From: Membranipora membranacea | Lineage: Eukaryota > Bryozoa > Gymnolaemata > Cheilostomatida > Membraniporidae | Length of the DNA: 64,000 bases | Assembly: GCA_914767715.1 (NCBI GenBank) | Contig: OU612069.1 | Span: forward strand, 29,077,387 to 29,141,386 | Reading direction: 5' to 3' | Shown here: positions 14,486 to 50,931 of the stretch, one piece after another | How positions within the stretch are numbered: the first letter of the stretch is position 1 | How the letters are laid out: each line of letters opens with the position of its first letter | The notes under the pieces: generated by a model | Told to the model about the DNA's origin: nothing | Seen by the model: only the letters and a program-made list of their open reading frames with translations | The model's database searches: none | Translations under genes and position numbers: made by a program

Positions 14486-14494
14486 TGCTGTATC

Positions 14495-14978: not shown

Positions 14979-14999
14979 TCCTGCGATGCCTTATTATAC

Positions 15000-28208: not shown

Positions 28209-28309
28209 AGTGTAGATTCTCTCTCCTGTACTTATCAGATAGATAACAATGTGCCTCTGTGTGTTGTCCTGTGGTGAGCTGTAATAGTACAGACATGTCC
28301 GCCTCTCTG

Positions 28310-28317
28310 CTTTTATA
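28310..28317 (-). promoter_or_regulatory. TATA box of cysteine-rich peptide gene, copy 3
   Basis: TATAAAAG on the minus strand, placed as in copies 1, 2 and 4. Confidence 0.65.
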
Positions 28318-29358
28318 TTACTCCTCTAGAGACCTTATATCCGGTTCCAGTTTGCAGGGTATTATGGCTACCATTGGCTGACAACCGACACGTGTTTGTC
28401 ATACACGGTATGTATTCAGATCTGATTTCTGTCGGTCTGCAGCAAATCGAGGGTCTTTCAAATATTAATCTCTTTGACGGCTGAAGCATGTCTTTTATCT
28501 CATTGCCATTATTTCTCCCTGTGTGTAGATCAAAGGTTTAATTTCTTCATTTGTGGTTTTCTTGCTCATTTTGTCAACAAGGAATGGGGATGCGTGCCAA
28601 CAGAGGTCCGCAGTACTTTTTATCCTTGAGAAAACGAGTTACATTAAGAGCTGAATACAAATTTTAAAATTGCTAAGTATTAATGAGTGTTAACACAAAT
28701 ATGCTTTGATGACCTGTTTTGTTCCCTCAATATCTCAATAACCCGCTAACAATAAATCACTTCTTGCTTGAAAATGCTTTGGTCCCTCGATATCTTAATA
28801 TAAATGCTATTCTTTGAAAGTTTCATGTTGGCACAAACATGTTGTTTTGATTTCCTCACACATTCTCACCGCTGAGTTCACCCACTCTTCCAGCCAATCA
28901 ACACAGATGTCACTATGATAGGTCAGTGACCTTGACATCAGATCATACTGATACAAAAAGGGGTGTAGTCAAATCAAAAGTACACCTCATCTTCAACTCA
29001 AAACCAAACTGTGACTAAAATATCACAGACATCTCATTTAAAAAAACTAATCTTTTACTTTTATATTGTATTCAACGGCAAAAGTGGTCTTACTTACTTT
29101 ACCCAAGGCCAAACTGTTCATGGCATTAACTAAGGTTGTGGTGATCATGGTCTGAGTCAACGTTGCTTTTAATCAGGATGTAATCTAAAGCCGTGGTGTT
29201 CATAACCTGAGTGTAAATTAAGCTTGCGTCATCCACAAAATTTGACAATAAAGAAATCAGAAAGCAAGGAAACTCATTCTTTGAGGATAGTGAATACCGA
29301 GTATACCGAGTATACCCTTTATTTATTCCGTACTGATTTCTTGCCCTGCTTGTCTCAG

Positions 29359-29481
29359 CATTCTACATCTGAAACACAGCAGATAGCTTTTGGTACAATC
29401 TCATATGATGGGGTAGCTGATACACAATCAGAGTGGGTAGTTATAGGAACAGCAAGTGATACATGTGAGGAGGCTACCTAA
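29359..29481 (+). CDS. Candidate exon 'HSTSETQQ' ending in a stop, unit 3
   Basis: The homologue of 14,313-14,435, with the same TGTCTCAG acceptor. It reads HSTSETQQIAFGTISYDGVA and ends SDTCEEAT and stop. A GTGAGG within the last codons could act as a donor. It is followed by the 34-bp palindrome insertion (core 29,501-29,528). Confidence 0.45.
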   Translation, partial: HSTSETQQIAFGTISYDGVADTQSEWVVIGTASDTCEEAT

Positions 29482-29540
29482 CTAAGACTGCTGTATCTAG
29501 CCTGTCTTGACAAGCTTGTCAAGACAGGTTATGCTGTATC

Positions 29541-29736
29541 ATGCTTTCCCCTCCTGCAAACTGGTGTGAACCACCAAAGATAATAATCTGGAAAAAGAGC
29601 TACAACTGCCGTCAAACATACAACTATTTAGAAATGGCTGAACTTGACCATGTGAGTGAGTGTTATCTAGGTCAGCCGGTGACCTTATTTTGTCTAGCAC
29701 CAAATTTTAACAAGCTGGGTTCAAAGTATAATCAAA
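29541..29736 (+). CDS. Sushi first-half exon, unit 3 (best copy)
   Basis: It reads MLSPPANWCEPPKIIIWKK, then NCRQTYNYLEMAE, SECYLGQPVTLFC and FNKLGSKYNQ. It ends in phase 1 at a GTAAGA donor (29,737). CEPP and VTLFC are the first two cysteines expected of a sushi/CCP domain, with two extra cysteines between. The matching second half (CSNNVW...PxC) is in block C, also in phase 1. In this unit that block lies beyond element 1, at 43,520, so the present gene would need a very large intron or is broken. No convincing upstream acceptor was found; the ATG at 29,541 is only one possible start. Confidence 0.5.
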
Positions 29737-29775
29737 GTAAGAAGGGTTTTAAATGTTAGCTAGCTGTTTCCAGAA

Positions 29776-30130
29776 TGGACAGAATGGCGAAATTTAACAC
29801 TTATGACTTCTTTACTCCTCTAGTAAAGTACTTCATTCCTTTGCAGCTAGTCATCTCAGTCTTTATCTGCTACCTCACTTCTTAAAATATGATAGACCTG
29901 TGGATTATAGGTGAAGACTTAGACGATCTGCTTCAAAATTCCCTGCAAAGCGCCCTCAGGCAGTTACCATATTGCAAAATACCAGTGCCATCGATAATGA
30001 CTGTTAGTCCTGCGACGCCTTATTATACTTTGAACAAATTTTTTTAACACCAAAAAGAATATTCATCAACGCAAAACCCTCAAGGTTCACAAGGCAATAT
30101 TGCAGTATGCACCCTGAAATATCTTTTTTT
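29776..30130 (+). pseudogene. Degenerate transmembrane-type exon, unit 3
   Basis: The homologue of 14,748-14,978. The CACTTCATTC of the other copies is CACTTCTT here, which breaks the first frame. The overlapping frame (MIDLWIIGEDLDD) stays open to a stop. Confidence 0.35.
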
Positions 30131-30144
30131 CTTGTGATAATGAT

Positions 30145-31130
30145 AAAGTCAGTCAATTCAATCAATCAACCAATTGGTCAGTCGATCGGTCAGTCAATCA
30201 GTCAGTTGTTCGTTTAATCAGTCTGTTAATTGGTCAGTCAGTCAGTCTGCCCATCAGTCATACCTTCATCAAATGATCGTTCATCAATGAATCAATCTAT
30301 CAATATATTGACCAAGCGATCAATCAATCAATCAGTCGAGCAGAGTATATAAAATGATATATTTAAATTTAATCGCATTTTTCCTGTAAACTTTAAATCA
30401 AACTAGAACATTGTCCGTGATTATTAAAGGATGATAATTGATTCTTGACGGACAGCGGTTTGTAGTTAAATCTTACAACAGTCATATTGAGTATCCTCCC
30501 AACAAAACATGATAACACTATGCACTGTTTAGCAGGGGCAGTGCAAAAACAGATCAGCTCTAGGCATCACCAGGGTTAGCTTCCTAAATTGAATAAATCT
30601 AATAGCCCTTCAAACTCGAGGGTACTATTTATGTTTTGTGGCACTTGCAGCCAGACTCGCTGCAGAAATCACCTGCATGATCCAGATACCAAAAAAAGAT
30701 TTTATGTGCATGAGAAAATTTGTCTATAAATCATGCCTGAGTCATTTATCATGTGGTGCAGATCTTTTGCTACTTTCATCGTGAGAATGATACTCCCTAA
30801 TAATCTGTGACATTGCATAAGTCAACCTGATAATAGATCCGAAAAATAAAGGCAACTGAGTATACCTATACAGTTAAAATCTACTGCTGCCATTCAGGAA
30901 AATTTCTGCTTAAAGTCCAAAGAGGGGTATAAAAGGCTCAGTCAACATAAAGCGATCACCCAGCCATATCAATTTCAGATGGGGTTAGCAGCATTCAAAT
31001 TCATCATGCTTTTTCGGAATTAGGAGGAGAAGCAGTGAATTATTTTTAATGGGAATCAGACGCGCTGATGCGGAATTGTGTGATACATGTGCCCAATAAA
31101 TTTTCATTCCAATAATGGCATCAGAAAATA
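30145..31130. other. Block E remainder and flank of element 1, no gene seen
   Basis: A simple CAGT/ATCA repeat (30,145-30,345) is followed by sequence matching 15,300-15,730 and a short piece of the start of block C. A TATAAAAGG on the plus strand at about 30,938 has no obvious transcript. Confidence 0.4.
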
Positions 31131-31133
31131 TAA

Positions 31134-31215
31134 CTGCAGTGGGATTCGAACCCACGACATCCAACACTTTCGTGTTTAAGTCCGGCGCTCTAACCAACTG
31201 AGCCACCTCCTACTC
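31134..31215 (-). mobile_element. tRNA-like SINE head
   Basis: On the minus strand: GGTGGCTCAGTTGGTTAGAG, then GTGGGTTCGAATCCCAC, a perfect T-arm. The anticodon region folds as AACAC/GTGTT with a four-base loop, and the acceptor ends do not pair. It is therefore SINE- or pseudo-tRNA-derived. The body after it differs from the other SINEs. Confidence 0.7.
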
Positions 31216-31422
31216 CTAGAAAAAAAGGGTTCAGCACTTTTTTTGGACTTATATGCCTCGAATGGAGTCCAATGTACATATGCCTAGTGTATTTATGTTC
31301 AGTTTCATAGAAGAATATTAAAATTTTGATGATAGATACTTTCTAATAAGTGGAAAGTTCAGAATTTAGAAGTTGCTGGTTAGGTAGGAGATAGGTTAGG
31401 AGAATATACACGGTGATGATTG

Positions 31423-31453
31423 AGTTCCGCCAAATCACTGCCATCTAATCTGG
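31423..31453. repeat. 31-bp direct repeat, left copy, at the end of element 1
   Basis: An exact match to 41,947-41,977. It encodes the last codons (QIRWQ, stop) of the large minus-strand frame, exactly where the RNase H domain should begin. Confidence 0.9.
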
Positions 31454-34400
31454 TTTGGATATGCTAACACTGGTTCAGAGGTTACTGCTGCTTTTAGAGT
31501 CTGAAAAGCCTTTTCCTGTTCATCTTTCCAATAAAACTTCTTTCCCCCTTCTGCCAATAAATCAGTTAGTGGTTTGGCAATATCAGAATATCGATATATG
31601 GCTCTTCTTAGGTATCCCATAGTACCCAAAAAGCCTCTAACCTGTTTTATTCGCTCTGGTCTTGGCAGATCTCTTACTTTATTGATATTTCTTTCGCTAA
31701 TTGACAGCCCGTTACCTGATAACTGAAAACCTACATATTCAACTGCTGGTTTAAAAAGATTGCATTTTCTTGGTTCTAGGCATACACCGGCTTGGCGAAT
31801 TCTTTCAAACACGGTATCTAACACCTCCAGATGCTCCTCAAGATTTGAAGTCATTACCAAGAAATCATCGATATATACCTGGATAACATCATCGGGGATA
31901 CCGGCAGCGATGACATTGGTGAGGGTTGTCATCCATAACGGGGATAGCTTCATTCCCTGTGGAACAACCTTGAGCTCTACTGCAGGTAATCGAACATTTG
32001 CCCCAAATGAAAAGGCCAGCAATTGTCGACTCCTTGGATCTGAAATTGGGATTTGGAAGAAACTTGATTTTAGATCCATGGTGGAGAACATCTGTTTCCC
32101 ATGACAATTCCAGCTAATACTGCTTAGAGACGGTAGAACTGTAGCTGAATCCTTGATTACACTATTTAATTTTCTGAGATCCAGAGTCATCCTTAGATCT
32201 CCATTTTTCTTGCGCACCCAATGAGCAGGGCTCAAGTATGGGCTATTAGTCACCTGCACTAAGCCTGAATCCATCATTTCCTTTGCAATTTTGTAAACTT
32301 GATCGAGCAATTGTGGAGCGACATGATATGGTCTGCATATAAATGGTTTGTGTGGTATTGTCTGAATTACTGGATCAATGATTGAAGTTTTACCCAAACA
32401 TTTTGGATCTCCATTGTAAAACGTGTCTTTGTTTCTTTCCAGGAAGGCTTTGATCCTGGCTTGATCATCTAGGCTGAATAGTTCCCAAGAAACATCAACT
32501 AGGCTGACTGGATCAATGATTTTCTCTGCTGGTAAAAGTACAGGATACTCAAGAGTTTCTTCCAATGACTCCAGTTCCACTTGCTTATTGTCTCCTGAGG
32601 TAGGTGTTTCTTCACAATTCAATTCCTCAGGCCCTTCTGTCACCAAGTTACAAGTCTCCTCTTCTTCTTTAGTCAGATTTACCTCATTTTTCCTTATTCC
32701 ATGGACTAGTGGCAAAATATTTCCTCCGAAATCAATGTATCCCTTTTTTATACAAAGGGACACATATCGAAAATTCCACGTGCTTCTGAATCCTAGGATA
32801 ACTTCAGAGGCGATTCCTTCGGCCCCAATTAAGAATGGCTGATGAAATACAGTATCTCCTATTCTTACCAAAATTTCTGCTTGACCTTCCAACTTTACTT
32901 GGTGTTGTGTGATTGATATTGGTTTGGCATTTGTAGGTTGTATCTTTAGTTGTAACGACTTTGCCACTGTGTACGGGATCATATTGTGACACGCTCCTGT
33001 GTCAAACAGTGCGTTGGTGCTAAAAGGATTCAATGCCCCTCTGTTGGTGAGGATCATACTGGGATTATACAACTCAATGCTAAACACCGGCAATATAAAT
33101 GGCGTATTTTCCCAGGTATGTAGTTCAGGCACTTCAGCAAATGTGTAAAATTCTTTGTCTCTCATCATATAATATCTGTCCCGTAGTTTTTGCGGAACTA
33201 AAGTTTTAATTCCACTCTTGGTGCATTGAAACAATATAATTATCAAGAAGAGTGTTACTAGACCGTTTACTGCAATTGTCCAGTACTGTAGAAATTCGTG
33301 CCATCCTGCCGTGAACCAATCCAAAAAGTTTAATTTTGGCGCTTTGGTAACGTTATCTGACGTGGCTATTTTTCCTGAATTTGGCCATAAGCCAACTCTT
33401 CTCATTCTTGTTCGTTCGACAGCCATTGTTTCCACAAAATCATTTAACAATTCTCCTTTTGAGTAAATGTCCTCGATGGGTACCATTTCTTGGTCTTCTC
33501 GATATATGTTCAGTGGTAAAGGATGAAATGTAACATTAGGGTGAAAGGCCTTAGTCCTCATTTCAGTGATGCTGTTCATAGGTTTATACTTTCCGTCCTT
33601 CCATGTATATTCATATGTTGTTCCGTTTAAAGTGATCACTGTTGATGAAGCAGCGTGGCACTGTATTTTGATCGCTTCCTTATGTATTATATTAGTGTAT
33701 GGATCCAGGTAACCAGTTGTGTTATTTCCCATCCAATTAAAATAGATAGGCACTCTGTTTAGACAACCCTGTGGTTTATGATTTATTGCAAGATCGTAAC
33801 CTTCAACAGGTATGCAGGAGTCTACTGCCACTATGGAGCCAGTTAACATTCTAGCTGTTATATAAGGATCAGATAGAAGATTTCTCATTGTGAAGGTCGG
33901 CTGAGCTTTAATTATCGCTCCGAAGAATTGTAACGCAGACCTTTCATGCTCGCAAAGGTATTGTATTCCAGTCCAAAATGTCTTTAGAGCGTTTTTTCGT
34001 ATGGAAATGGTTAGTGATTGTCCAATCGAGTTAAATGTTGCATAAGTTCCTAGTATGTCCGGAGAAGCATTCTGAGGTGGTATTGCGGGGAGGTATTCCG
34101 GGCTTGCTTGTTCCGTCTTAATTTTTGAAGTGTTAGATACATAGAATCCTTGATCAGACATAAGAGCTGAAATAGCTGTTTGATTTTCAGTTTCTGGACA
34201 TAGCTCTGTCCTTTCAAGTCCATGTTCCGTAAAGCTGAGACCCATTATTCTGTCTGAGGACAACCAATTCCCATTCCAAAATTCTCCTGTCTTGGTGCCC
34301 CATTCTGTATACCTACAGACCTCATTGAGCTGTGGTTCCCATATGACGGTTCCATAACTTGGTATTTTGCAATATCCACTCCGGTAGTTACATCCATGAA

Positions 34401-37400
34401 GATTTCCTAGTGATGTTTTGATCGTTTTTGACTTCCTGTTGTAGTACAAGTATCCCTTTTCTAATACATAGTCGTGCACAGTTTCGTTGAACCACTTACA
34501 GCACCAGGTGTAAGTTGGAGTGGTAGAGGCATGAATAGAAATTTCCCCATTTTTTTCATATAACATGTTACCGACGAGTCCTTTACGGTTTATCATATCC
34601 TGACATGTTTCCCTTGATACTGGCTCATATTGCTCAGTTTGGTGATGGACTCGTTCATCCGCAAAAAAATATAGAAAGGTCATTATAGTTGTTATGCGTT
34701 CATAACACAAAAACCCGATTTCTTGCTCCATAACTGGTCGTTGTTGATAGAATGTCATGTTAATGTTTTGAATAGTATGATTTGAATCTTCATATTTTGG
34801 ACAACTCGTAGTTTTTTCCAACTGCATAAGTAATGGTGAACGTGAGTCTAGGCCAGAATTCTGGTGACATACCATTGGTTTTACATGTTCGCCAGAATTG
34901 CCCTCCGTTTTGTGAATCAGTATTAACATCAGTATGGTAAGACATTTTGCCCCAAACAAGAATGTGAAGCATTGTCGTCTCAGTTTTGTTTGTTGTGTAG
35001 TTAACTCGTCATTCCTCTTGACTAAATTCTCTAGATCGCTTTTGTATCTATTCCTCTTATGTGTCTGCCGTTTAGTAGGGTTTTGTAGGGTTGTTTTCTG
35101 TGGCTTAATTCTATCCTTATTTACCATTAGATTGTCAAATATTATTGATACTGAGTAGTGACGTCCTTTTTCTGGATAAGGTCCTGTTATTGTACGATAA
35201 TCTGGCACATTGCACCATAGTTGCTCGTTTAAATGTTCCCATACTTTGTAGTCACTTAACTCCATTGTTAATGTGGCCTCAACTTTGCGAAGCCAAAATT
35301 CCCAGTGTTTTATTGCGGATAGAAAAAGTTCTGCCTCCCGTTCTTCTTTTGATGAGAAAACCTGGTCCTTGTTCAGGCATTCTTGATAGCTTCCTACTTT
35401 GTTGTAACCCGAGCTTACATCATAAGCTTGGGATAAGTTTATAATTCTTTTTCCAGAATCTAATGTAGCTTCATGCATTCTATAAATGTAATCGGCTGAC
35501 TGTGATATTGTAGATGTGTTGCTAAATGATGCGTACTTGGACACTGGCTCACTGGGTGATGTTACATCAGGAATTTTATCTTGGATATCTTCTTTTTTAC
35601 AGGTTAGTGAGGTTTTATCAACTTCTTCTTTTACACCGTAAACCTTTTTCTGATGTATGACCGGAAGAACCTTCTCGCTGTCTTGACGTGTGCTTTTTGC
35701 AACAGCAATCTTTACCGTAAATGGCTCAACTTTGTGTAAAAGTGTGTGATGTTTGTTGATTTTGGCAATCTTTCTTCTCTGCACCAGCATTGGCCAGACG
35801 ATGTCATCTTCAGTCATCATTCCAAATGTAGTCCTGTTTGCAGGAGGGTTGTTCCTGCATGAGTAGGCATTATGGCCTATAGCCAGACAGCGTGAGCATC
35901 GTTGTCCTCCACGATGAGTAAGGTTATTAGTTGGCTGTAGATTTTGTCTAGCGTAGTTTCTTAAAGTAGTTTCAGGATCCGACCTATTATTTTGTAAACT
36001 TCCGTTTGGCCTAATATTTCCAGTAGGAAACTGACCAGGTGTTGCTGTAGCACTATTACTGCGGCCCTGATTTGATTCATATGTCGTTCTGGCATGATTT
36101 TGAGTAGGACCTCTGTTATTTGTTGAATACTGTGGTCTAGCACTGTAGCCGTTATTATTGTACCGGGGTGCATTGCTGTAAGTTTGATTATATTGTGTTC
36201 TGTACGGATTTCCAAAGCGATCAACATTAGGTCTAAATTGTGTTCCCTGCGGTCGTGAGTTAAACCTAGTTTGACCCGAATTTTGGTTATATGGGTGATA
36301 CCTATTATTATTATAACCAGATTTAGACTGCCAGTCTCGTGTCTGATTGTTTAGCTGCTTATCTTGATCTGCTACCTGTTGCCGATTCCTTATATCCAAG
36401 TCTTTTACTTGTTTAACTAAGGATTGCATTAATTCGTTATCTTGTGATGCCATAATTGCGTTAGTATGGCCCTGCGTTGGGCGCCTAGCGTTGCGCATCT
36501 CAGGGTCATTATCCAGTACAGCACTAGTATTTTCGATGCGTTCGGCCATTCTAAACGCCTCTTGTAAGGTGATCTGTCCTCTATTAAGGACTTGTCGTTT
36601 AGTTCGACTATCTAATCCTCTAATAAATTGAGATTTTATAATCTCAGTCAATGCTGCCTCTCCTAGGTCAGGAAATGTTTGTTTTGCAAGACTAGTTATG
36701 GTAGTGAAATATTTGCCTACTGTGTCTGAGCCTTTAGCTCTAGTAAACAACTCTGTAGATTTAATGAGCCCGCCTTTTGAGCTGAATTTCTTCTTCAGTT
36801 TAGCTACGAGTTTATCATAATTATCGGCTATAAGTGGTTTGTCCTTAATTAATGATTGATACGCTAATAATGCGCTATCCTTAAAATATGTTGCTATTAA
36901 CCTAGCCCACTGATACTTCGGGATTCCCAGTCCATGACTTTGCAATTCAAAAGTTTCTAATAGCTCAGTGAAAGTCAACGTATCTTGAAAGGAGTTATAA
37001 AACTTACCGATTTCCGGTATTTTTCCATGCATTCCGATGAAGCGAATAGTGTGTTCCTTATCTCTTGTTTTCTTTACCTTTTTCTCCTTTCTTATCCTGT
37101 TCATATTGTCATCCTCTGACTGGGACTCGTCACTGCCGGAGTCTGAAGAGTTTGGGTCACTGTCACCTCCTCCTCCTCCGTCATTTTGTCTTTTCTGTCT
37201 TCTGTCGTCCTTGCTATCTCGCCATCTGGGAAGATTGTTGTCATCATTCCTTTTGTGGCGACCATCTTTACCATTCTTCTTTCCACGGTGTTCATCATCA
37301 TCATCATCATCGTCATCATCATCATCATCATCCCGTCTGCGGCGACCATCTTTACCATTTTTCTTATCACGGCGTTTGTCACCATCATCATCATCATCAT

Positions 37401-39771
37401 CCCGTCTACGGCGACCATCTTTACCATTTTTCTTATCACGGCGTTTGTCACCATCATCATCATCGTCATCATCATCCCGTCTGCGGCGACCATCTTTACC
37501 ATTTTTCTTATCACGGCGTTTGTCACCATCATCATCATCGTCATCATCATCCCGTCTGCGGCGACCATCTTTACCATTTTTCTTATCACGGCGTTTGTCA
37601 CCATCATCATCATCGTCATCATCATCCCGTCTGCGGCGACCATCTTTACCATTTTTCTTATCACGGCGTTTGTCACCATCATCATCATCGTCATCATCAT
37701 CCCGTCTGCGGCGACCATCTTTACCATTTTTCTTATTACGGTGATCATCCTCATCATCATCCCGTCTTTGGTGACCATCTTTACCATCTTTCCTACCACG
37801 GCGTTCGTCATCATCAATTTTCCTGCGATGGTCATCTGTACCATCCCTATTACCACGGTGATTATTGTTGTCATCATTATTCCTTCTGCGATGGTCATCT
37901 TCATACCATCTGGGTGGGTCATTTGTACCGTCCTCCTTGTCTGATGAGCTATTGTCTGATGGAGAGTTGCCAGGTCCTCCATTAGTTGCTGTTTGATTTT
38001 GTGGTTTTGCCCTATCTCTTATCCTTCTCTTATTATTCTCCGCAAGTTTTCGTCGAAGGTCTAGGTATCGCAAAAATTCTTCAGTTGGGTCCTCAACCTC
38101 TGGTTCTGGTTTTGCTGTCTTGTGATCTACAAAATCAGACTTGGGACTCTTTTTTACTGAAATGTGAGGAGCCAATTGATCAAGATAAGATTGAGGTGGT
38201 TGCATTAAATTAGGCAAGTCAAAGTCTGTGACGGAACTGTCATCGTCACTTGCTACATCAATAATTTTAGTTTTACAATCTATAAATGGATTAGTTTGCA
38301 CTGGTGACTTACCTTCAACTGTTACTTTATTTTGCAGGAGTTGTTCCGGCTTATGCTGATATAACCGTCTCTCTGCTGGTGTCATCTGCATCATTACAGC
38401 GGACATATTCTGTGCTGAAGCCGGAGCTGTATGTCTTACTATCTGTTTCCTGTCTTTACTTTCCGGTATAGGGCTACTATGACAGACAGGTACGTAATTA
38501 CTATGCTGCGTGGTTCCTCTGACTCCATATGTATCTTTATGAGGGTCTGTTCCAATATTGGGCTCCGTAATTCCGGTTTTGTGCAGAGTTTTATTGAGTG
38601 ATTTATGCCTTGTAGTCATATCTGCTGCACAAGTCATAAATGCAGTATCATTATTTGAGTCAGATGATGAGACATCCATTTGCTCTGGCTGATCCATTTG
38701 TTCTGGCTTAGCCTTTTGTTGATTAGGATCATCAGAAGTTTGACTGCGGTGATTTCTTTCAGATGTAGAAGTTGGCCTATAACTTTCATATAGATCGTGA
38801 TCCGGTGAAGGAGCGGTGGGTATTGTTTGAGTATATTGCGTATCTGTGTCATCCTTCAACTTATTCTTCTTTGACGGTGCGTCTCTCCCTGATTTTGGAG
38901 TTATTTTGACTTCCGAGTAACTTGAAGGGTTAACTTGTTGCGGACTTTCATTACTTTCCCGTAGCTTCAATTTTAGTTTAGTCAGGGGCATATTGCTATT
39001 TCTAGTCCCGATCATCTCCTGTAACAAATCCATTTCTTCTCTTGCTTTTATCAGTTCTGCTTTTATGTCCGGATAAATTCCCTGACTAGTATTGGAATCT
39101 TCCTCCCTTGTATTGGGGTAAGTGGCTGATGACTGACCCATTACTGCTGGAGTGGGTTCAAAGCGTATTTTTCTTGCTACTCCTGGAGTTATTTCCGCTC
39201 TGATTTTTATCTTGTTTGATGATGGATCAGGATTAATTTTATTCTGTGAGCTTGATTCCTTCTGGCGATCACCAGATGTTGATTCTAGTTTCTTTGCAGT
39301 AGTTTTGGTATGCTGTTTCTTAGTCTTAGGCTTAGTTGTATCTATTACTGGCAGGTAGTCTGAGACAGATTCCTCCGTCTCTGTTGAAGAATCAGAGCTG
39401 TTAGAGTTTTCCGATTCAGAAGACGAGGACTGTTCAATGGTGTCCTTGTGAGCAGATCTTTGTTTTTTGTCTGTTGATTTGCGGAGTTTCCGTTTAGATT
39501 TTCCCCAATTTTCACCATCCTCTTCAGCACTGCTGCTGTTGGAACTGCTAATTTCTGGTTCCTTCATCTTTTTCTTGGTTTTTATGTTGCGTTTTTCTGA
39601 GGATAATTTTGAAAATTCCTTTGGGATGTGAACGACAGTACTTCCTTGTTCTTCAGAATCGCTACTGCTACAGCTACTGCTACTGCTACTAGAGTATGTA
39701 CCATTCTTTTGCCTTGACTTCTCCTTGTCTGGTGTAACAAATTTCCAGAATTTCTTGAAGGCTTTTGACAT
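31435..39771 (-). CDS. Retroviral-like polyprotein: gag, envelope-like glycoprotein, protease and reverse transcriptase in one frame
   Basis: The uninterrupted frame is 2778 codons. Residues 1-680 are Ser-rich and charged. At about 680-840 an acidic/basic block is repeated six to seven times. At 905-1085 there is a retrotransposon gag-type helical domain, and at 1292-1305 a CX2CX4HX4C zinc knuckle. About 1601-1620 is a hydrophobic segment (signal or anchor). An ectodomain follows with N-glycosylation sites, CCKWF (1757), CNYRSGYC (1794-1801) and a basic RTRMRR (2120). A transmembrane segment lies at about 2161-2183. Then come the aspartic protease (DTGA, 2257-2260) and RT (YIDD, 2633-2636), cut off after AYPN before RNase H. 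RNase H, integrase and a 3' LTR are absent. Ty3/gypsy-like elements normally carry env after pol; here it lies before protease. The element is defective for integration, but the long open frame argues that it is young or maintained. Confidence 0.85.
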   Translation of the reverse strand: MSKAFKKFWKFVTPDKEKSRQKNGTYSSSSSSSCSSSDSEEQGSTVVHIPKEFSKLSSEKRNIKTKKKMKEPEISSSNSSSAEEDGENWGKSKRKLRKSTDKKQRSAHKDTIEQSSSSESENSNSSDSSTETEESVSDYLPVIDTTKPKTKKQHTKTTAKKLESTSGDRQKESSSQNKINPDPSSNKIKIRAEITPGVARKIRFEPTPAVMGQSSATYPNTREEDSNTSQGIYPDIKAELIKAREEMDLLQEMIGTRNSNMPLTKLKLKLRESNESPQQVNPSSYSEVKITPKSGRDAPSKKNKLKDDTDTQYTQTIPTAPSPDHDLYESYRPTSTSERNHRSQTSDDPNQQKAKPEQMDQPEQMDVSSSDSNNDTAFMTCAADMTTRHKSLNKTLHKTGITEPNIGTDPHKDTYGVRGTTQHSNYVPVCHSSPIPESKDRKQIVRHTAPASAQNMSAVMMQMTPAERRLYQHKPEQLLQNKVTVEGKSPVQTNPFIDCKTKIIDVASDDDSSVTDFDLPNLMQPPQSYLDQLAPHISVKKSPKSDFVDHKTAKPEPEVEDPTEEFLRYLDLRRKLAENNKRRIRDRAKPQNQTATNGGPGNSPSDNSSSDKEDGTNDPPRWYEDDHRRRNNDDNNNHRGNRDGTDDHRRKIDDDERRGRKDGKDGHQRRDDDEDDHRNKKNGKDGRRRRDDDDDDDDGDKRRDKKNGKDGRRRRDDDDDDDDGDKRRDKKNGKDGRRRRDDDDDDDDGDKRRDKKNGKDGRRRRDDDDDDDDGDKRRDKKNGKDGRRRRDDDDDDGDKRRDKKNGKDGRRRRDDDDDDDDDDDDDEHRGKKNGKDGRHKRNDDNNLPRWRDSKDDRRQKRQNDGGGGGDSDPNSSDSGSDESQSEDDNMNRIRKEKKVKKTRDKEHTIRFIGMHGKIPEIGKFYNSFQDTLTFTELLETFELQSHGLGIPKYQWARLIATYFKDSALLAYQSLIKDKPLIADNYDKLVAKLKKKFSSKGGLIKSTELFTRAKGSDTVGKYFTTITSLAKQTFPDLGEAALTEIIKSQFIRGLDSRTKRQVLNRGQITLQEAFRMAERIENTSAVLDNDPEMRNARRPTQGHTNAIMASQDNELMQSLVKQVKDLDIRNRQQVADQDKQLNNQTRDWQSKSGYNNNRYHPYNQNSGQTRFNSRPQGTQFRPNVDRFGNPYRTQYNQTYSNAPRYNNNGYSARPQYSTNNRGPTQNHARTTYESNQGRSNSATATPGQFPTGNIRPNGSLQNNRSDPETTLRNYARQNLQPTNNLTHRGGQRCSRCLAIGHNAYSCRNNPPANRTTFGMMTEDDIVWPMLVQRRKIAKINKHHTLLHKVEPFTVKIAVAKSTRQDSEKVLPVIHQKKVYGVKEEVDKTSLTCKKEDIQDKIPDVTSPSEPVSKYASFSNTSTISQSADYIYRMHEATLDSGKRIINLSQAYDVSSGYNKVGSYQECLNKDQVFSSKEEREAELFLSAIKHWEFWLRKVEATLTMELSDYKVWEHLNEQLWCNVPDYRTITGPYPEKGRHYSVSIIFDNLMVNKDRIKPQKTTLQNPTKRQTHKRNRYKSDLENLVKRNDELTTQQTKLRRQCFTFLFGAKCLTILMLILIHKTEGNSGEHVKPMVCHQNSGLDSRSPLLMQLEKTTSCPKYEDSNHTIQNINMTFYQQRPVMEQEIGFLCYERITTIMTFLYFFADERVHHQTEQYEPVSRETCQDMINRKGLVGNMLYEKNGEISIHASTTPTYTWCCKWFNETVHDYVLEKGYLYYNRKSKTIKTSLGNLHGCNYRSGYCKIPSYGTVIWEPQLNEVCRYTEWGTKTGEFWNGNWLSSDRIMGLSFTEHGLERTELCPETENQTAISALMSDQGFYVSNTSKIKTEQASPEYLPAIPPQNASPDILGTYATFNSIGQSLTISIRKNALKTFWTGIQYLCEHERSALQFFGAIIKAQPTFTMRNLLSDPYITARMLTGSIVAVDSCIPVEGYDLAINHKPQGCLNRVPIYFNWMGNNTTGYLDPYTNIIHKEAIKIQCHAASSTVITLNGTTYEYTWKDGKYKPMNSITEMRTKAFHPNVTFHPLPLNIYREDQEMVPIEDIYSKGELLNDFVETMAVERTRMRRVGLWPNSGKIATSDNVTKAPKLNFLDWFTAGWHEFLQYWTIAVNGLVTLFLIIILFQCTKSGIKTLVPQKLRDRYYMMRDKEFYTFAEVPELHTWENTPFILPVFSIELYNPSMILTNRGALNPFSTNALFDTGACHNMIPYTVAKSLQLKIQPTNAKPISITQHQVKLEGQAEILVRIGDTVFHQPFLIGAEGIASEVILGFRSTWNFRYVSLCIKKGYIDFGGNILPLVHGIRKNEVNLTKEEEETCNLVTEGPEELNCEETPTSGDNKQVELESLEETLEYPVLLPAEKIIDPVSLVDVSWELFSLDDQARIKAFLERNKDTFYNGDPKCLGKTSIIDPVIQTIPHKPFICRPYHVAPQLLDQVYKIAKEMMDSGLVQVTNSPYLSPAHWVRKKNGDLRMTLDLRKLNSVIKDSATVLPSLSSISWNCHGKQMFSTMDLKSSFFQIPISDPRSRQLLAFSFGANVRLPAVELKVVPQGMKLSPLWMTTLTNVIAAGIPDDVIQVYIDDFLVMTSNLEEHLEVLDTVFERIRQAGVCLEPRKCNLFKPAVEYVGFQLSGNGLSISERNINKVRDLPRPERIKQVRGFLGTMGYLRRAIYRYSDIAKPLTDLLAEGGKKFYWKDEQEKAFQTLKAAVTSEPVLAYPNQIRWQ
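37250..37800 (-). repeat. 69-75 bp tandem repeat inside gag
   Basis: Six to seven units encode KKNGKDGRRRRDDDD and then DGDKRRD, with varying Asp number. The unit length is always a multiple of three, so the frame is kept. The GAT repeats (ATC on the plus strand) create long shadow frames in all other phases. Confidence 0.9.
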
Positions 39772-39884
39772 TTTGAAAATTATAAGATAAGTAAAAAAAA
39801 ATAAAAGTAAAAGTAAAAAAAAAATATAGGTATCCGCTTATGTTAAATTATACAATACCAAGTTTGTGTTTTGATCCGGGAGTT

Positions 39885-39908
39885 CAAGTCTGCTTGAAAA
39901 GCCCAGCT
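39885..39908 (-). other. Possible LTR end and primer-binding site of element 1
   Basis: On the minus strand the sequence reads CCTCACA, two bases, then TGGGCTTTTCAAGCAG. A CA end followed closely by TGG is what an LTR 3' end and tRNA primer site look like. The TGG-initiated stretch runs on into a TTCAAGT-like T-loop complement at the correct 16-nt distance. It is 113 bases upstream of the polyprotein start. No second LTR exists here to confirm it. Confidence 0.35.
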
Positions 39909-41084
39909 GTGAGGAACGGAAATTAATACTAGTATAGTAATATACCAAAATCGTATACTAAATACTTAAAATATTCAAGGTTCCAACACGTAATTTAATG
40001 TATAATTTGTCTAGTTCTGATTATAATTGGAGTTGTATTCTCCTTGAACTTTCTTCCTAAACAATGGAAGATAACTACAACTTACTAAGGTTCTTGTGTA
40101 AAATTTTGGTAGCAAGTTAATTCAAATGTAGCAAATTAACCTTAACAAAATTTAAAACGACGAACAGCTGGCTCCCCGTTCCCAGTTTAGAGAAACCCTT
40201 AGAATTGTTTTATTTAAGTCTGACCCCTCTTGGACTTCGGAGAAGTTGGCTCCTAGCCTTTTTAAAGAGTGGCTCCTGCCGATATACTGCCGAAACTCCT
40301 TGGTTGTTCTAGCAGTAACTCGAGTGGAGTTGAAAATATTCATGCACCACAAAGCAATTATATAACCCTTTTTGGGATATGAGCGTGCGGTTAATTTAAA
40401 ATTGATCTTTGTATAGTGCCTGGAAGCCCAATTAGGTAGCTTAGGCAGTTTAATCAGAATCACAGGCCTTATAACTTAATGTTCGTTATAGACTTCAATC
40501 CACTTCCCTTTGGGACCAAGAGAAGCTTTAGGTCGCTTCAAATTTCGCAGTAGATTTATAATTGGAGTTATCTTTGATTATTCAAAGGTAATACAACTCC
40601 TATTTTGTGTCTGATTTGAATTTTGCAAAGTTAATTTTATAAATGACTCTTGAATCCTAAAACTTGGTGTTGTTTAAAATAACTGATTCGGAATATCAAG
40701 CGGGTGTCAAATGAGGTTAAATAATTCTATTTAGTTTGTTTTTCTGAAAGTATTTCTAAAAATTCCAATAATGTTGAGATGTCAAAATATAATATGGTAA
40801 AAAAATATAAAGATAGTAATTACCAAAAAAATCCTTCCGTTAGCCTTTCTTCAGTAGTTAATGTCCAATATAAATCCTTATAAGATGTGTGTAGAAAAAA
40901 TATGATTCAAAGTATAAGGTGTACTTAAATAATTTAGCTTTTGATAAAATGATTCAAATATTGTTTGTAATACAATTCTTATAATTGTATTAATAAGTGT
41001 TCTGTGAGTGTGTACTCTCTCGTTGTGTGTCGTGTGTGTGTGCGTGTGTTTGTGTGTGTTATTCTTAGTGACGGGTCTTCACTC

Positions 41085-41230
41085 CTTTTATACCCTTTGT
41101 TTGGTTTTCCAGCACGTGTTGCTAACATGTGTGTAATATCATCTCGTGTTTATACCTGCTGTTTTAAGTTTGGTTTTCCAGCACGTGTTGCCACCATGTG
41201 TGTAATAGCAGCACGTGTTTAAAACTGCTG
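41085..41230 (-). promoter_or_regulatory. Probable U3 promoter of element 1: TATA box with duplicated CACGTG-containing enhancer
   Basis: TATAAAAG lies at 41,085-41,092 on the minus strand. Upstream of it are two copies of a unit of about 70 bp (41,098-41,230). CACGTG palindromes (E-boxes) are at 41,113, 41,182 and 41,212. A start near 41,055 would give a leader of about 1.3 kb before the ATG at 39,771. Duplicated enhancers upstream of TATA are common in LTR U3 regions. Confidence 0.5.
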
Positions 41231-41946
41231 TTCTGTGACGTTCTATGAGGTTCTAGGGTGTTCTGTATTTACTGGTTCAAACTGGTTTTAGCTGGGGTTT
41301 TTTTATCATCTGGTGTTTTCCTCGGAGCCATCACTGCTTTTCTCTATAAAATAAAACATGTTATCTTAGTCTTAATATTTCACCATATGTGAGTAATAAT
41401 GTTGTGGCCTAATTAGTTCTAGGAAACTGGAATTCCCAGTTTCCTATAATTTTCTCAGTCTTACTAACGATCATAATTTATTATACTTAACTAGAGTTTT
41501 TGTTTAGTTGTTTTTCAAATGTGGCGGTATCACTAGATGCCATTGGCTTCCGGTTTTGAGTAATTTTTAGGTAGTCTAATTTCCTGGTTTGATTTAGATT
41601 TCCAAATTTCAGCATCATCGGATAAAATGTACAGCGATAAATCATAAATAAAGGTTTAGCTTGTTATGACTAAGCATCATGTTAATTGGCAGCTTATTCA
41701 AGGCTTTGATATTTGTTAAGCTGTTCTGCCGTAGTACATTATTATTAACGATGTTACGCTGAAATAAATTTAATGTATGATTCAAATGTGAAAATATCTA
41801 AATAACGCAATGTAACAATGATTCTTTGCCATAAACCATGGATGTTATTTATACCTGCTGTTCTAAAATCTAGCTGGGTATATAAGCATTTGCGGTAACT
41901 TAAAATGGCAGTGTTTTAGCGTTGTTTTCCTTTTTTCTGTGCTGAC

Positions 41947-41977
41947 AGTTCCGCCAAATCACTGCCATCTAATCTGG
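41947..41977. repeat. 31-bp direct repeat, right copy
   Basis: Identical to 31,423-31,453. Together they bracket 10.5 kb. Sequence outside both copies appears to be the host duplicated segment. Confidence 0.9.
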
Positions 41978-43519
41978 GGGAGCAAATTGTGATGTCCAAT
42001 TATAACTGATCTTCATAATTCATAAGGTAAACACAAACTTCAGATAATCAGCAAACTGAGGATAGTGAAAATTTCATAGTAGACCAGATGGTCTTTCACA
42101 AAACTCTATAGGTTTGAGAAATGAGTATGACAACAAGAGATAGGCTGGAAATTGATTGGTTTGGTTGACGTGTAGGTTTGACTGGATGAAACTTTAATTA
42201 TGGAACGGGTAAACAGAAACCTAGCCCACTGCCGGGAGCTGTGTCGTCTCCTGGGTTAAAGCTAAATTTTTTCCATTTTAAGAACGATTATTTGCTACAA
42301 CAGATGGTCGCTACCAAGCAAAACATCACAAATCAATTGATCACTTTTTATGTTATAGATGAAAACAATTGTAATGATAGAATTTAATATAAGATGATGA
42401 CATATTATAATATATAACTTACCCCTCAGATCATGTGATCATTAAGGCTACAAACATCAGAGCCTGAAAAGATAAATGACCCCTGGTCAATGCAGTCAAC
42501 GGAGAATGTATGTCATGGGATTATTAATCAGATTGAAATAATAATAATCGTTAATCAATTATCCTTTCCTTGAATCATAAGTGCTCTCTGCAGTCAGGAA
42601 GAAGCACCAGAGAATTCTGCATAGCTCCAAGATAATTAGTTGAGACTTAAATCTCAAATTTTTCACCTAAGGGGCAAATAATTGGTACAAACTGATCTTC
42701 AAAATAAGGGCATGAAATTAATTGTCTACTGCAACAAGTGACGTTGTTACCATCTTACTAGTGCTATGAATGCGTCCTCTCACTGGCATTCTGTTGGGAC
42801 AGTTTCTGGCTTGGAGATGTTCAGCCATTAACTGGCAGATGGTAGCCTTCATCATTAATCAGTTCGTATATGGCAGGATTACCAGCGGAATAACATGTCT
42901 ACAGTAGATTAAATCTAACCTGACTCACGATGATCTATGTCCAGCTCATGTTCTCTTTTAGTGGGTATACAAAGCTTGGTGAATTCTACCAAGTTACGGT
43001 CTGTCCTCCCAAGTAAACTGCGACTCAGAGGGTAAACAGGGCTCTACTTCATTGAAGATTTAAATTAGAAGAGGATAGTGTTTAAGCAGTTATCTCATTA
43101 AATAATTAAAAATGTAAACCCAAACCTTGCCCACTGCCGGGAGGTCATAGTCTACTATATTCAAGCGTAATTTAATATAAGCTAAAATTATGTCTATTTC
43201 AAGAATGACCAATTTCTACAACAGATTGTCGCCAACAAGGATAACATCAAACATCAATTGATCCTTTTTTATGTTCTTAATTAAAATAATAGTAATAAAG
43301 TATGAAATGAAATAAAACAAACACAATACAATAAAATAAACTGTGTCTAGCCCTAGCATTGCATTAGCAGCGTCTGCACATTTATTTATATCAAAAAATC
43401 TGCAGCTTTATTGTTTGACTTTATAATGCTAATGTCTTCAGAAAAAATTTTCTGATTCATTTTTGAAATTTTGAGTTTTATTTTCTTTAAAAACAAAGAC
43501 ACCTGCAACTCAACTTTAG
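41978..43519. other. Rearranged host sequence with a relic of the cysteine-rich peptide gene
   Basis: Positions 42,404-42,620 match exon 2 and the preceding intron of the secreted peptide gene on the minus strand. The exon reads ALMFVALMIT and then TGA instead of GGA. Exons 1 and 3 are missing. This is a fifth, dead fragment. The rest shows scattered block C similarity and no gene. Confidence 0.5.
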
Positions 43520-45328: not shown

Positions 45329-45659
45329 TGTAAGGATGACATCAGATGTGAATAGACAAATTCATATCATCATCATTAATAGGTCATCATGTTAAGAATG
45401 TGCCAAGATTCATGACTGATTGTGCTGTCATCGAAATTAATTGATTGAATATTCATTTGCTCGCTGTATCCTGATTACATTTTGTTACCATCATATGAAC
45501 TGCTGTATTACTATTGGTTTAGATATTTTATGTCTCATATATATATATAAGAAGTTTTACTATCAAATAAACCAGTTAATAAGTTGCAACGAAGTAGCGT
45601 AGTACTTCTAAGTGATCACAAATACCCACCACAACTTGTAAGGACAGCGCACCCTTACA
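45329..45659 (+). repeat. 5' LTR (331 bp)
   Basis: It starts TGTAAGG and ends CCTTACA (7-bp terminal inverted repeat). It has a TATA-like (AT)6 run near 45,535-45,550 and AATAAA at 45,566-45,571. The only difference I find from the 3' LTR is one extra AT unit in the (AT)n run. Confidence 0.95.
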
Positions 45660-45661
45660 TC

Positions 45662-45680: not shown

Positions 45681-45694
45681 TGAAAGTTGAGACA

Positions 45695-48600
45695 ATGGAT
45701 CCTGGAAATCTCAACGAATATGACGGTGGCGAGGAGGTCAACCGCAATGAATATGACGGTGTCGAGGAGGTCAACCGCAATAAAAAAACGGTGGCGAGGA
45801 GGTCAACCGCAATGAATATGACGGTGGCGAGGAGGTCAACCGCAATGAAACAGACGGTGGCAAGGAGGTCGACCGCAACGAAAAAGACAGTGGCGAGGAG
45901 GTCGACCGCAACAAAAAAGACGGTGGCGAGGAGGTCAACCGCAACGAAAAAGACGGTGGCGAGGAGGTCGACCGCAATGAAAAAGACGGTGGCGAGGAGG
46001 TCGACCGCAATGAAAAAGACGGTGGCGAGGAGGTCAACCGCAATGAAAAAGACGGTGACGAGCAGGTCGACCGCAACCTCGAGAACGAGGAAGCGGAGCC
46101 AGTAGACGAGGCTCTGCAACAAATAAATGATTACTTGGGAGCTATCAGGCAGGATATGCAAGCCCAGGAGGAAGCGTGGAAGGAGGACCTTGTGCAGTTT
46201 ACAATGACATTTGCTGCTCAACAAAAACAGCTAATGGAACAGCTCACTGAGCAGGTGACCAAGCAAATTGAGGAGATGGGGAAACAGATGATGACAAAAA
46301 TGGCAAATGAGAGATCAGGGACGACAATGGGACGGATGGCTACAGCACCAGTAATAAACACAAACATGAGGACACAGACACAGCTGAATGTTGAACAAAC
46401 ACCAAGCCCAGGTAAGAGTTATCCATCAGCAAGCAGTAATTCAAATAATTCAGGAAAGAAAGATTGGGTAAAGTTTGGTCTCAAATTTACTGCCAAATCC
46501 ATCCAGCAACAATCAGGTGAAAATGTGAAAACCAGTCAACATGGTAATATTAGAGATCATAATCAATTTAGAGAACACGCCCGTGGTAGAGGCAGAGGCA
46601 GAGGAGGTCGTGGTACACACACTATGGCCAATTCTCAGGTCCCTCAGGAGCCTCCAGATCCAGGTATTAATCAACCATCTGAAAATACAAATAATAGGCA
46701 TTATGAGGAGTTTGACAATCGCATATTTGACCCATGTGCCATTGATGTGATTGATGTCATTGACTATGACAATAGGAATGTGACCACTGGATTTTCAAAT
46801 GACACGCCACAGTATGTGTCAAAGAAAACAATGACTGGGACAAAAATTCCCAAATATAGACTAACATCTGGACTTGTTTTTATCATCTTAGCTATTTGTA
46901 TGACCCTACTAGGTTTTGTCGGTAACGTGAATGTAACAACACCAATGATATGCAAAACTGATCATCCGGTTGCTAAATTCAGACTGCCAAAACTATCAGG
47001 TTGTGATCTCAAACGTGGCCACATGGACTTGCATGCATCAATAGACCAGAATGTGACTTTGTTCAAACCGAATCTGATTCAATATAAATCCAAGGCACAT
47101 CACTGTAACATACTTAGAACTGACATCACAGCACATGCAGGATTTTTTGGTGAGTATAGGAATAGGACGACTACACACACAAATGAACTCGTGACAATGG
47201 AAACTTGCAAAAACATGGTACAATTTAAAAGGGCACCTTTTGGTGACATGACTGAAATAGGTGGAATATACCAAACTCAAATTACAACTGATTTTAAATA
47301 TCACACAGGATTTAAGTGCTGCACTGACTGTGACTTTTCATCTAAGAATGCTTTTCTCTGTGAATCTGTGGTAATTATCAGACATGGCAAAGATGAGGAC
47401 ATGCAGAGTCCGGTGGGTAGCACAGCTCACTGTGACTACCATTCTGGTTTTTGTAATTTGTTTGATGAATCAGGACTGTTATGGACACAAAATGAAAAAG
47501 AAAAATGTCTCTATTTACCGCATATATTCTATCAAGGAAAACTACTGCAGAGGACTTGGCTATCAAATGACGGGGAATTGGCCTTGACTTTTGCAAACCC
47601 AAAGCGTATTCAGCAAAACGAGGACTGTGGCGGGGTTGTAGACATAACTGACCAGGGTGTCGCAGTTAAAGTTGGTGACCTAACTAAGACAAGGGAGAAA
47701 CGACAGATAGAGGGGACCGTTTTAGCGACTGAATTGAATTCTAGACTACAGGCAATTGGAATACATGTTTCACAGAATTTTAACAAGATGTTTCACACAA
47801 CATTTAGGCTAACTTGTCAAAATATGATGAAGATGGCGGACCTTTTACTTGTATCACTTGATGAATATCCTATTCTGTCTGCGAGACATCTGTTGAATAA
47901 TTCATACATTTATGCACAGAAACCACATGATTTCATAACCATCTATCCTTGTCAGCCAGTGGACCACTATGAGATTATCTCTTCACCAGAACAATACACG
48001 AAACGAATTCCAATGGCTGTTTCATTAGGTGTCACCAACAGGACTATGTGGTTAAGCCCTCATGACAACAATCTGCATGACACTCCAAGCCTCATTGACT
48101 TTGCATTAAATCAGGAGATTCCAATGGTAATTGGTGGAGATTTATTCTTCTATGCACATATTTATGGGACTGTCAGGAGGGCCAGTGGCATTGACAAGCT
48201 GAATACGATAGCGCTTGATTTTTCTGATTTGGGAAACAATATTGGTCTACCTGTCATACATAAACTACTATTATATGATTGGCATTTATTTAGAGGAAAA
48301 TTTACATTGAATAACTTGACAGGTGCCATGCAATATCAACATACGATACTTGGGAATCTAATAGGCATTACAGACAATAATAATGCAAACAAAAACCCCC
48401 TTGAGGAAATGCATGATTCCTTGAAGGTTGCATGGGCATTGGCAAGGGATAACTTGGAATGTGCGCAAACTAACTATAAATACTACCATGATCTTAATAC
48501 TAACAGACATCAATATAAGGTTGGGGATGTGGTTTACGTGAAGGTTCCCCATATGGCAGTTGGCAATATTAAGAAATTTTCTTCTTCATATCTAAAGCCT

Positions 48601-48882
48601 TATCTGATTGTTATGTTAAATGGATTAAATGCTGATGTTAGGGCACTAGGCACAACTGGTTTGCCAGTGGGCACTCAGTTCACTACCCACCTGGTGCGTT
48701 TGAAGAAAGCTAAGGCACCTTTGACATCTGATTTTACTCCTGCCAGCTATGTATCTGTAAAGAGGAAACCTGCAACTAATCCTGCTGTGGCCGTTCCAGC
48801 TTCTAACTCCGCTACACCAGCTCAGAATGATTCTACTAAGACAAGTTCACATGGCTATAATCTACGAGCTAGGAATAACTAA
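45695..48882 (+). pseudogene. Gag N-terminus-like, envelope-like glycoprotein and integrase C-terminus in one gene (frameshifted near its start)
   Basis: The start ATG is at 45,695. About eleven 30-bp repeats encode NEKDGGEEV(N/D)R-type units. One repeat is a base short in an A-run near 45,781, putting the start out of frame with the rest. From about 45,784 the frame is open to 48,882. It encodes a coiled coil (about 46,108-46,320), an RGRGRGGRG segment (46,582-46,615), and a hydrophobic anchor (46,870-46,930). An ectodomain follows with a CC pair (47,317), CDYHSGFC (47,431-47,454), a furin-like REKR (47,692-47,703) and PCQPVDHY (47,947). The last part, 48,405-48,720, is a gypsy-type integrase C-terminal domain (A..N...AQTNYKYYHD, then YKVGDVVYVK). 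The usual C-terminal membrane anchor of env is missing. The deletion joins env directly to integrase. Confidence 0.8.
45713..46075 (+). repeat. 30-bp tandem repeat (charged, coding)
   Basis: Eleven or so units of GACGGTGGCGAGGAGGTC plus 12 variable bases. One unit is 29 bp and causes the frameshift. Confidence 0.9.
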
Positions 48883-50602: not shown

Positions 50603-50931
50603 TGTAAGGATGACATCAGATGTGAATAGACAAATTCATATCATCATCATTAATAGGTCATCATGTTAAGAATGTGCCAAGATTCATGACTGATTGTGCT
50701 GTCATCGAAATTAATTGATTGAATATTCATTTGCTCGCTGTATCCTGATTACATTTTGTTACCATCATATGAACTGCTGTATTACTATTGGTTTAGATAT
50801 TTTATGTCTCATATATATATAAGAAGTTTTACTATCAAATAAACCAGTTAATAAGTTGCAACGAAGTAGCGTAGTACTTCTAAGTGATCACAAATACCCA
50901 CCACAACTTGTAAGGACAGCGCACCCTTACA
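50603..50931 (+). repeat. 3' LTR (329 bp)
   Basis: Matches the 5' LTR except for one AT unit. Near-identity implies a recent insertion. Confidence 0.95.

What the first reader, a model, noticed from the sequence alone, without database searches (positions are those of the whole stretch)
31435..39771. Envelope-like glycoprotein lies between gag and protease-RT in one continuous 2778-codon frame
Seen: zinc-knuckle gag, then hydrophobic segment, cysteine-rich glycosylated ectodomain, transmembrane segment, then DTGA protease and YIDD RT, with no stop or frame change. Known: retroviruses and env-bearing Ty3/gypsy or BEL elements place env 3' of pol, usually expressed from a spliced RNA. Inference: this is a different genome order. 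The envelope-like protein would be made as part of the Gag precursor, or released by cleavage, and packaged differently. It may represent an undescribed lineage.
Basis: partly seen in the sequence, partly recalled or inferred. Interest (0 to 1): 0.88.

Follow-up and report, generated by a model that had tools for sequence, protein, structure and literature searches.

The report
Retroelement with envelope between gag and pol
A family of virus-like jumping genes in what appears to be a sea-mat (bryozoan) genome carries its envelope protein in the middle of its main protein rather than at the end; the same odd order has been reported in flatworms, and here it looks like an old, stable design.

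Summary
Minus-strand ORF 39771-31435 (2778 codons) reads Gag, signal segment, glycoprotein, TM, DTGA protease, YIDD RT and the start of RNase H; integrase and 3' LTR are missing, so this copy is truncated. The glycoprotein is a class III fusogen: PF24664 E 1e-12, model like herpes gB and mononegaviral G. Of 63 env places in the genome, 17 have RT within 8 kb downstream on the same strand, none upstream, two opposite only, 44 none. Eight env lineages share the order; one copy is a single 3338-codon frame. Env-bearing RTs fall on one side of an RT tree (89/88), suggesting one capture. Env and the linker before it are conserved as protein in lineage A. In lineages E and H a CAA-UGA-C stop follows env; in D it follows the protease. 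I infer a membrane-threaded Gag-Env(-Pol) polyprotein; a spliced env message is not excluded. The order is not new: it was published in 2019 for planarian Burro elements (PMC6431247).

The parts
39908..42093 (-). 5' LTR of element 1, about 2.2 kb; inner end (TTCCGTTCCTCACA) at 39908, outer end extrapolated and approximate
   Evidence: Similarity to LTRs of the C10 and C3 relatives; inner end located
39880..39905 (-). primer-binding-site-like stretch starting TGG, two bases after the LTR (approximate, by eye)
   Evidence: Sequence shown
31435..39771 (-). Single 2778-codon open frame: gag-env-PR-RT-partial RNase H
37226..37896 (-). 75-bp tandem repeats in N-terminal gag (Lys/Arg/Asp-rich)
36520..36987 (-). 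Capsid-like domain (Ty3_capsid E 7e-4; Retrotrans_gag E 0.01; both below cut-off)
35857..35898 (-). CCHC zinc knuckle
34975..35751 (-). Linker between knuckle and signal; aligns with a segment that in the 58% family matches RNase H (Pfam E 1.8e-5, 1.9e-5, 1.1e-4 in three copies). The window copy itself gives no Pfam match
34915..34971 (-). Hydrophobic signal/anchor segment preceded by basic residues
33283..34914 (-). Class III fusion glycoprotein ectodomain; PF24664 match at 33550-33966
33229..33279 (-). Transmembrane segment
32788..33018 (-). Aspartic protease (DTGA at 32992-33003)
31720..32217 (-). Reverse transcriptase (YIDD at 31864-31875)
31450..31530 (-). First part of RNase H; homology ends just after
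45329..45659 (+). Element 2, 5' LTR (TGTAAGG...CCTTACA), 99.4% identical to its 3' LTR; flanked by TCTC (by eye)
45784..48882 (+). Element 2, 1032-codon frame: charged repeats, env ectodomain 92% identical to the 2469-codon family, then an integrase C-terminal stretch 94% identical over 35 residues; internal deletion removed env TM through most of integrase
50603..50931 (+). Element 2, 3' LTR

Best explanation
Truncated copy of a Ty3/gypsy-type provirus from an old, diversified group in what is most likely the bryozoan Membranipora membranacea, with the order LTR-gag-env-PR-RT-RNaseH-IN-LTR. Env is a class III fusion glycoprotein of mononegaviral (nyamivirus/chuvirus-like) type, placed in frame at the gag/pol junction (shown: order, fold class, largely agreeing env and RT trees; inferred: one capture). 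Most likely working (inferred): one message is translated from Gag onwards; the hydrophobic segment after Gag enters the ER membrane as a signal anchor, the ectodomain is threaded into the lumen, the second segment stops transfer, and protease-RT-IN continue in the cytosol. Signal peptidase and the viral protease then separate Gag, Env and Pol, much as capsid and spike are separated in alphavirus and flavivirus polyproteins (recalled). Env is thus made together with Gag. In lineages E and H a UGA stop in a leaky-type context follows env, and in D one follows the protease, so that Gag-Env would be the abundant product and Pol a readthrough extension.
Against: No transcript or protein data. Several copies are broken: B_C7 has stops within its protease, G has env and RT in different frames, H has a second stop just after the TM. 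44 of 63 env places have no RT match within 8 kb, and two have one on the opposite strand only. Capsid and knuckle matches in the window are below Pfam's cut-offs. The env model is of middling confidence (pLDDT 62.7, pTM 0.36) and TM-scores to gB are about 0.3; L024's env has no PF24664 match and L021's and element 2's are below cut-off. Met codons lie close to or within the signal in D, E, G and element 2, so a separate start is possible there. Env dN/dS is weaker elsewhere: B pairs 0.225, 0.276, 0.23 and 0.703, E pair 0.154, F against derivatives 0.335 and 0.338, derivative pair 0.76. The TM-protease linker of two B copies differs by 3 non-synonymous and 0 synonymous changes. As labelled, the RT tree needs two changes (shuffled mean 6.9, 0 of 500 as low) because L050 was entered as env-less; it has long branches and support below 95 at the key split. 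D groups differently in env (77/83 with EH) and RT (93/91 with FG).
Confidence: 0.62

Rival explanations
1. Env is expressed from a spliced message that joins a leader or the gag start to a site shortly before the signal segment; the unspliced frame stays open only because Gag-Pol must read through env.
For: Spliced env mRNA is the rule in simple retroviruses (introduction of the Cer1 paper, passages). Met codons lie near the signal in D, E, G and element 2. No RNA data here exclude it.
Against: Gag-Pol would still have to contain a whole ectodomain. The linker directly before the signal is conserved as protein in lineage A, stops lie after env and not before it in D, E and H, and three 58%-family copies have no Met in the last 85-100 residues before the signal.
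Confidence: 0.28
2. A vestigial or one-off insertion: env was carried in by recombination and has no role.
For: The window copy is truncated and many copies are broken. Deletion derivatives of family F differ from each other almost neutrally in env (dN/dS 0.76).
Against: The order recurs in eight lineages with env identities to the window copy down to about 20%; 28 columns of 642, many of them cysteines, are invariant; strong purifying selection in lineage A.
Confidence: 0.03
3. The elements here and planarian Burro are one lineage, inherited or passed between hosts, rather than two independent arrivals at the same order.
For: Burro has env in frame between gag and PR with hits to arthropod and fish mononegaviral fusion glycoproteins (PMC6431247 section 7), the same type of env as here.
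Against: Burro ORF1 of 4,873 or 5,140 residues carries BCL2-like, BIR, ankyrin and dUTPase-like parts not matched in the pieces scanned here. No Burro sequence could be compared.
Confidence: 0.4

Closest known systems
Burro gypsy-like LTR retrotransposons of planarians (Schmidtea, Dugesia; PMC6431247, section 7 read)
   Same: Env in frame between gag and PR in one polyprotein; env resembles mononegaviral fusion glycoproteins; PR-RT-RH-IN follow.
   Different: Burro is far larger (ORF1 4,873 or 5,140 aa) with accessory domains; here 2,469-3,338 codons in the longest frames without matches to them; some lineages here have a stop after env; the host appears to be a bryozoan. Kinship not tested.
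Anakin, BEL/Pao elements with chuvirus-like glycoprotein in mosquitoes (PMC7642597, abstract and passages)
   Same: Retroelement that captured a chuvirus-type glycoprotein.
   Different: Different superfamily (BEL/Pao). [quoted passage not shown] Anakin's own order was not seen.
Lokiretroviruses (as described in PMC9040795, passages)
   Same: Env resembles fusion glycoproteins of Mononegavirales.
   Different: Retrovirus relatives with dual RNase H; the place of their env was not stated in the passages seen (recalled as 3' of pol).
Errantiviruses and gypsy (recalled)
   Same: Ty3/gypsy pol with a viral-type env.
   Different: Env 3' of pol as a separate ORF, usually from a spliced RNA (recalled).
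Herpesvirus gB and nyamivirus/chuvirus G
   Same: Class III fold; furin-type sites REKR and RGKR in the ectodomain of lineages F and G.
   Different: Here part of a retroelement polyprotein; 10-18% identity in the structural alignments shown.

Membership tests
Ty3/gypsy (Metaviridae) LTR element | PR-RT-RNaseH-IN order | tested here: met
   Window PR-RT-partial RH; protease by tblastn or by motif, then RT-RH-IN, in relatives L022, L024, L026, L028. The window copy lacks IN.
Ty3/gypsy (Metaviridae) LTR element | Two LTRs with TG...CA ends and 4-6 bp target duplication | tested here: inconclusive
   Element 2 yes (TCTC duplication by eye); paired LTRs in several relatives; element 1 has only the 5' LTR.
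Ty3/gypsy (Metaviridae) LTR element | RT grouping with named Ty3/gypsy elements | not tested
   The RT tree held only rows of this genome
Ty3/gypsy (Metaviridae) LTR element | Gag with capsid and CCHC knuckle | tested here: inconclusive
   Both found in the window but below curated cut-offs; Retrotrans_gag and zf-CCHC above cut-off in L025
Burro-type gag-env-pol element | Env in frame between gag and PR | tested here: met
Burro-type gag-env-pol element | Shared ancestry of RT and env with Burro | not testable with these tools
   No planarian sequence held; protein database switched off
Burro-type gag-env-pol element | Accessory BCL2/BIR/ankyrin/dUTPase-like domains | tested here: not met
   No such Pfam match in the pieces scanned
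Class III viral fusion glycoprotein (Monjiviricetes type) | PF24664 profile match | tested here: met
   E 1e-12, 47.3 bits against cut-off 27; 13 of 14 pieces at E 0.01 or less, some below cut-off
Class III viral fusion glycoprotein (Monjiviricetes type) | gB/G-like fold | tested here: met
   middling model confidence, TM about 0.3
Retrovirus (Retroviridae) | env 3' of pol | tested here: not met
   0 of 63 env places with an RT match upstream on the same strand within 8 kb (119 RT places entered)

The most novel reading that the evidence does not exclude
A retroelement group in which the envelope belongs to the structural precursor: Gag-Env is one membrane-threaded polyprotein, made one-to-one, with the recoding stop moved to the far side of env in some lineages so that only Pol is made sparingly, and with budding-type motifs (YPxL) in the env tail in lineages D, E, G and H. 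Entry protein and capsid would then be linked at birth, with no separate env message.
Probability: 0.5. Interest if true: 0.78.

Novelty: new variant of a known kind. Interest (0 to 1): 0.6.

Why it matters
Capsid and envelope genes of retroviruses are normally expressed apart. A stable group that fuses them asks how Gag can assemble while tethered to a lumenal spike, and gives a test bed for how env genes are captured. It also extends a layout reported for planarians to what appears to be a second phylum, with eight lineages, a conserved linker and stops placed after env, which makes the expression question directly testable.

Tried and rejected
Homology search in the large protein database: switched off. 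Viral contigs: no match with the single env, and with the alignment 54 pattern matches, none confirmed. PDB by sequence: no match. Single-sequence fold of env: useless, pLDDT 36. 2A peptides: no NPGP in the ten env-region pieces scanned. A retroviral class I envelope: no support; the 50 PDB rows shown are herpesvirus gB entries, one titled only as a varicella-zoster glycoprotein. Env 3' of integrase: no RT match upstream of env on the same strand. An env-less relative (C8:6704952, RT 34%) has a separate gag-sized frame, PR, and a pol frame ending in a long tail after integrase motifs, with no env seen in the pieces fetched, so middle env is not general in this genome. An RNase H-like segment before env as a rule: significant only in the 58% family; no Pfam match to it in the C, D, E, F, C10 or window pieces; window 0.008 with my own profile. 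YPxL motifs are absent from the A, B, C and F pieces scanned. L020:5071-6780 holds an RVT_1 match downstream of a B env that the lineage RT query did not hit; I take it for an unrelated element, untested.

Counting notes: env matches were merged by hand from 77 to 63 places; 119 of 120 RT matches were entered, a second fragment of one place being left out. One of the 17 downstream pairs (C8:4021196, 4.5 kb apart) may be two elements; the other 16 lie about 0.7-1.6 kb apart. Both searches score only the best candidates (74 of 107; 119 of 653), so counts are lower bounds. The deletion derivatives were found with env as query, so that they keep env is biased by the search. The 16 rows called env-less in the RT tree were picked by me as having no env match within 8 kb.
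Full report
What is there. The frame on the minus strand runs from ATG 39771 to the stop at 31435, 2778 codons. Scanned in pieces against Pfam it shows a Ty3_capsid match (E 7e-4) and a CCHC knuckle (E 6e-4), both below cut-off, PF24664 Monjiviricetes_fusion (E 1e-12), aspartic protease (E 9e-6), RVT_1 (E 5e-28) and the first 27 profile positions of RNase H. Two hydrophobic segments, starting at residues 1601 and 2165, bracket the glycoprotein. The frame ends in RNase H; no integrase was found in window 26001-32000 and no second LTR copy in the window. A 5' LTR of about 2.2 kb, recognised by likeness to relatives, ends at 39908.

Host. The window is C5:29077387-29141386 of a 339,339,785-base genome. 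The eleven chromosome lengths printed with the loci equal the sizes in Table 2 of the Membranipora membranacea genome paper to the precision given (PMC10290214, search listing and one passage seen). The species is inferred from that.

Is the order fixed? The env piece finds 77 matches in the genome, merged to 63 places; RT finds 120, 119 entered. Within 8 kb on the same strand, 17 env places have RT downstream and none upstream; two have RT on the other strand only; 44 have none. Pieces of fetched copies show RT, RNase H and integrase after env in L022, L024, L026 and L028, and integrase in L018; tblastn adds L030 and L031. I call the lineages A (window), B (58% env identity), C (34%), D, E, F, G, H (22-26%). 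Frames unbroken from gag through RT are those of the window, one C copy (3338 codons) and four F copies (2469 codons); the other fetched copies have stops or frame breaks somewhere. Element 2 in this window (45329-50931, plus strand, LTRs 99.4% identical) is a deletion derivative of F: its env is 92% identical and a 35-residue integrase stretch 94%, with the TM, protease and RT between them lost, so env is 5' of integrase there too. Eleven places at 90-93% identity end at F env residue 502-503, which I take for one shared break. In A, two relatives have LTRs 99.2% and 99.9% identical around gag and env, with no protease or RT match; their frames are not continuous.

One origin? In a tree of 24 RTs, the eight env-bearing rows and L050 lie on one side (support 89/88), 15 rows without an env match on the other. 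L050 was labelled env-less, so the label needs two changes (shuffles: mean 6.9, 0 of 500 as low); but it retains the tail of the G envelope, 35 residues at 100%, in the open frame in front of its protease. Env and RT trees of the eight lineages share the groups AB, ABC, EH and FG and differ in D. This fits one capture followed by common descent; long branches and support below 95 keep it open.

Translation. In lineage A, env has dN/dS 0.068 and 0.078 (dS near saturation) between the window and two relatives, and 0.096 between those two (11 synonymous, 4 non-synonymous changes). Elsewhere it is weaker: B pairs 0.225, 0.276, 0.23 and 0.703, E pair 0.154, F against derivatives 0.335 and 0.338, two derivatives 0.76. 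The A linker before the signal, 176 codons, has dN 0.334 and dS 1.2, and its last 24 codons 8 non-synonymous and 11 synonymous changes. Between TM and protease, A and B align as protein with dN 0.5 and saturated dS; two B copies differ by 3 non-synonymous and no synonymous changes, which says nothing for constraint. More basic than acidic residues precede the signal in 9 of 9 pieces that show it and follow the TM in 10 of 10. Three B copies have no Met in the last 85-100 residues before the signal, whereas D, E, G and element 2 have one near or in it. On balance these point to a chain read without a break, crossing the membrane twice with Gag and Pol on the cytosolic side.

Stops. The fetched A, B, C, F and G pieces show no stop between TM and the protease motif. 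Two near-identical E copies have CAA TGA CAA TCA about 95 residues after the TM, and H has CAA TGA CGC at the matching place after LYPSLQ; D has CAA TGA CTA after its protease. UGA-C, UGA-CUA and CAA-stop-CAA are known leaky contexts (recalled). H has a further stop right after the TM. YPxL motifs occur in the tails of D, E, G and H; each arises in 1.3-2.8% of shuffled tails. They resemble ALIX-binding late domains (recalled) and are absent from the A, B, C and F pieces.

An RNase H-like segment lies between knuckle and signal in B (Pfam E 1.8e-5, 1.9e-5 and 1.1e-4 in three copies); the window's linker aligns with it but is not significant itself. It may be a relic of how env arrived, with a piece of pol upstream; that is speculation.

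Known or new. Arkhipova & Yushenova 2019 describe planarian Burro with env in frame between gag and PR and call it the first case (PMC6431247, passages and section 7). Anakin (PMC7642597, abstract and passages) is a BEL/Pao element with chuvirus-type glycoprotein. Lokiretroviruses have mononegaviral-type env (PMC9040795, passages). Troyka has no env (PMC12440569, abstract and section 12). [quoted passage not shown] In the three answered literature searches on this point I saw no other case of middle env in the listings, but I opened only the papers named here, and most subscription papers and bioRxiv itself are not held. The gene order is thus a known kind; what is added is the group in this genome, its depth, the conserved linker and the stops after env.

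Noticed in passing
window 1-64000: Host DNA is a repeated segmental duplication with long blocks about 79-96% alike (for example 1-3000 with 24674-27687; 12837-15755 with 27870-30816), into which both elements inserted; it gives a near-empty site for element 2.
   Followed up: partly
window 31127-31224, 22674-22767, 16799-16887 and others: tRNA-derived SINE-like repeats on both strands (by eye), one called by ARAGORN as a tRNA with an odd anticodon.
   Followed up: no
window 45684-46111: 33-bp tandem repeats at the start of element 2's frame; element 1 has unrelated 75-bp charged repeats in its Gag, perhaps a common property.
   Followed up: no
L009/L010 and L011/L012: Elements with 2.2-2.35 kb LTRs 99.2-99.9% identical around gag and env, without a protease or RT match: recently moved, apparently pol-less.
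   Followed up: partly
L013, L017, L019 (58% family), between CCHC knuckle and env: Degenerate RNase H-like segment upstream of env.
   Followed up: partly
L025/L026 and three other places (C5, C7, C8): Four copies with 2469-codon frames and env identical over 561 residues; LTRs of the fetched copy 100% identical over 326 bp, so recently inserted.
   Followed up: partly
L035:78-3101: An env-less relative's pol frame continues after integrase into a long tail with zinc-finger-like cysteine/histidine pairs (by eye).
   Followed up: no
L023/L024: Lineage D has an array of about 335-bp repeats beside its LTR.
   Followed up: no
L020:5071-6780: An RVT_1 match not hit by the window RT query lies downstream of a B env; probably another element.
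   Followed up: no
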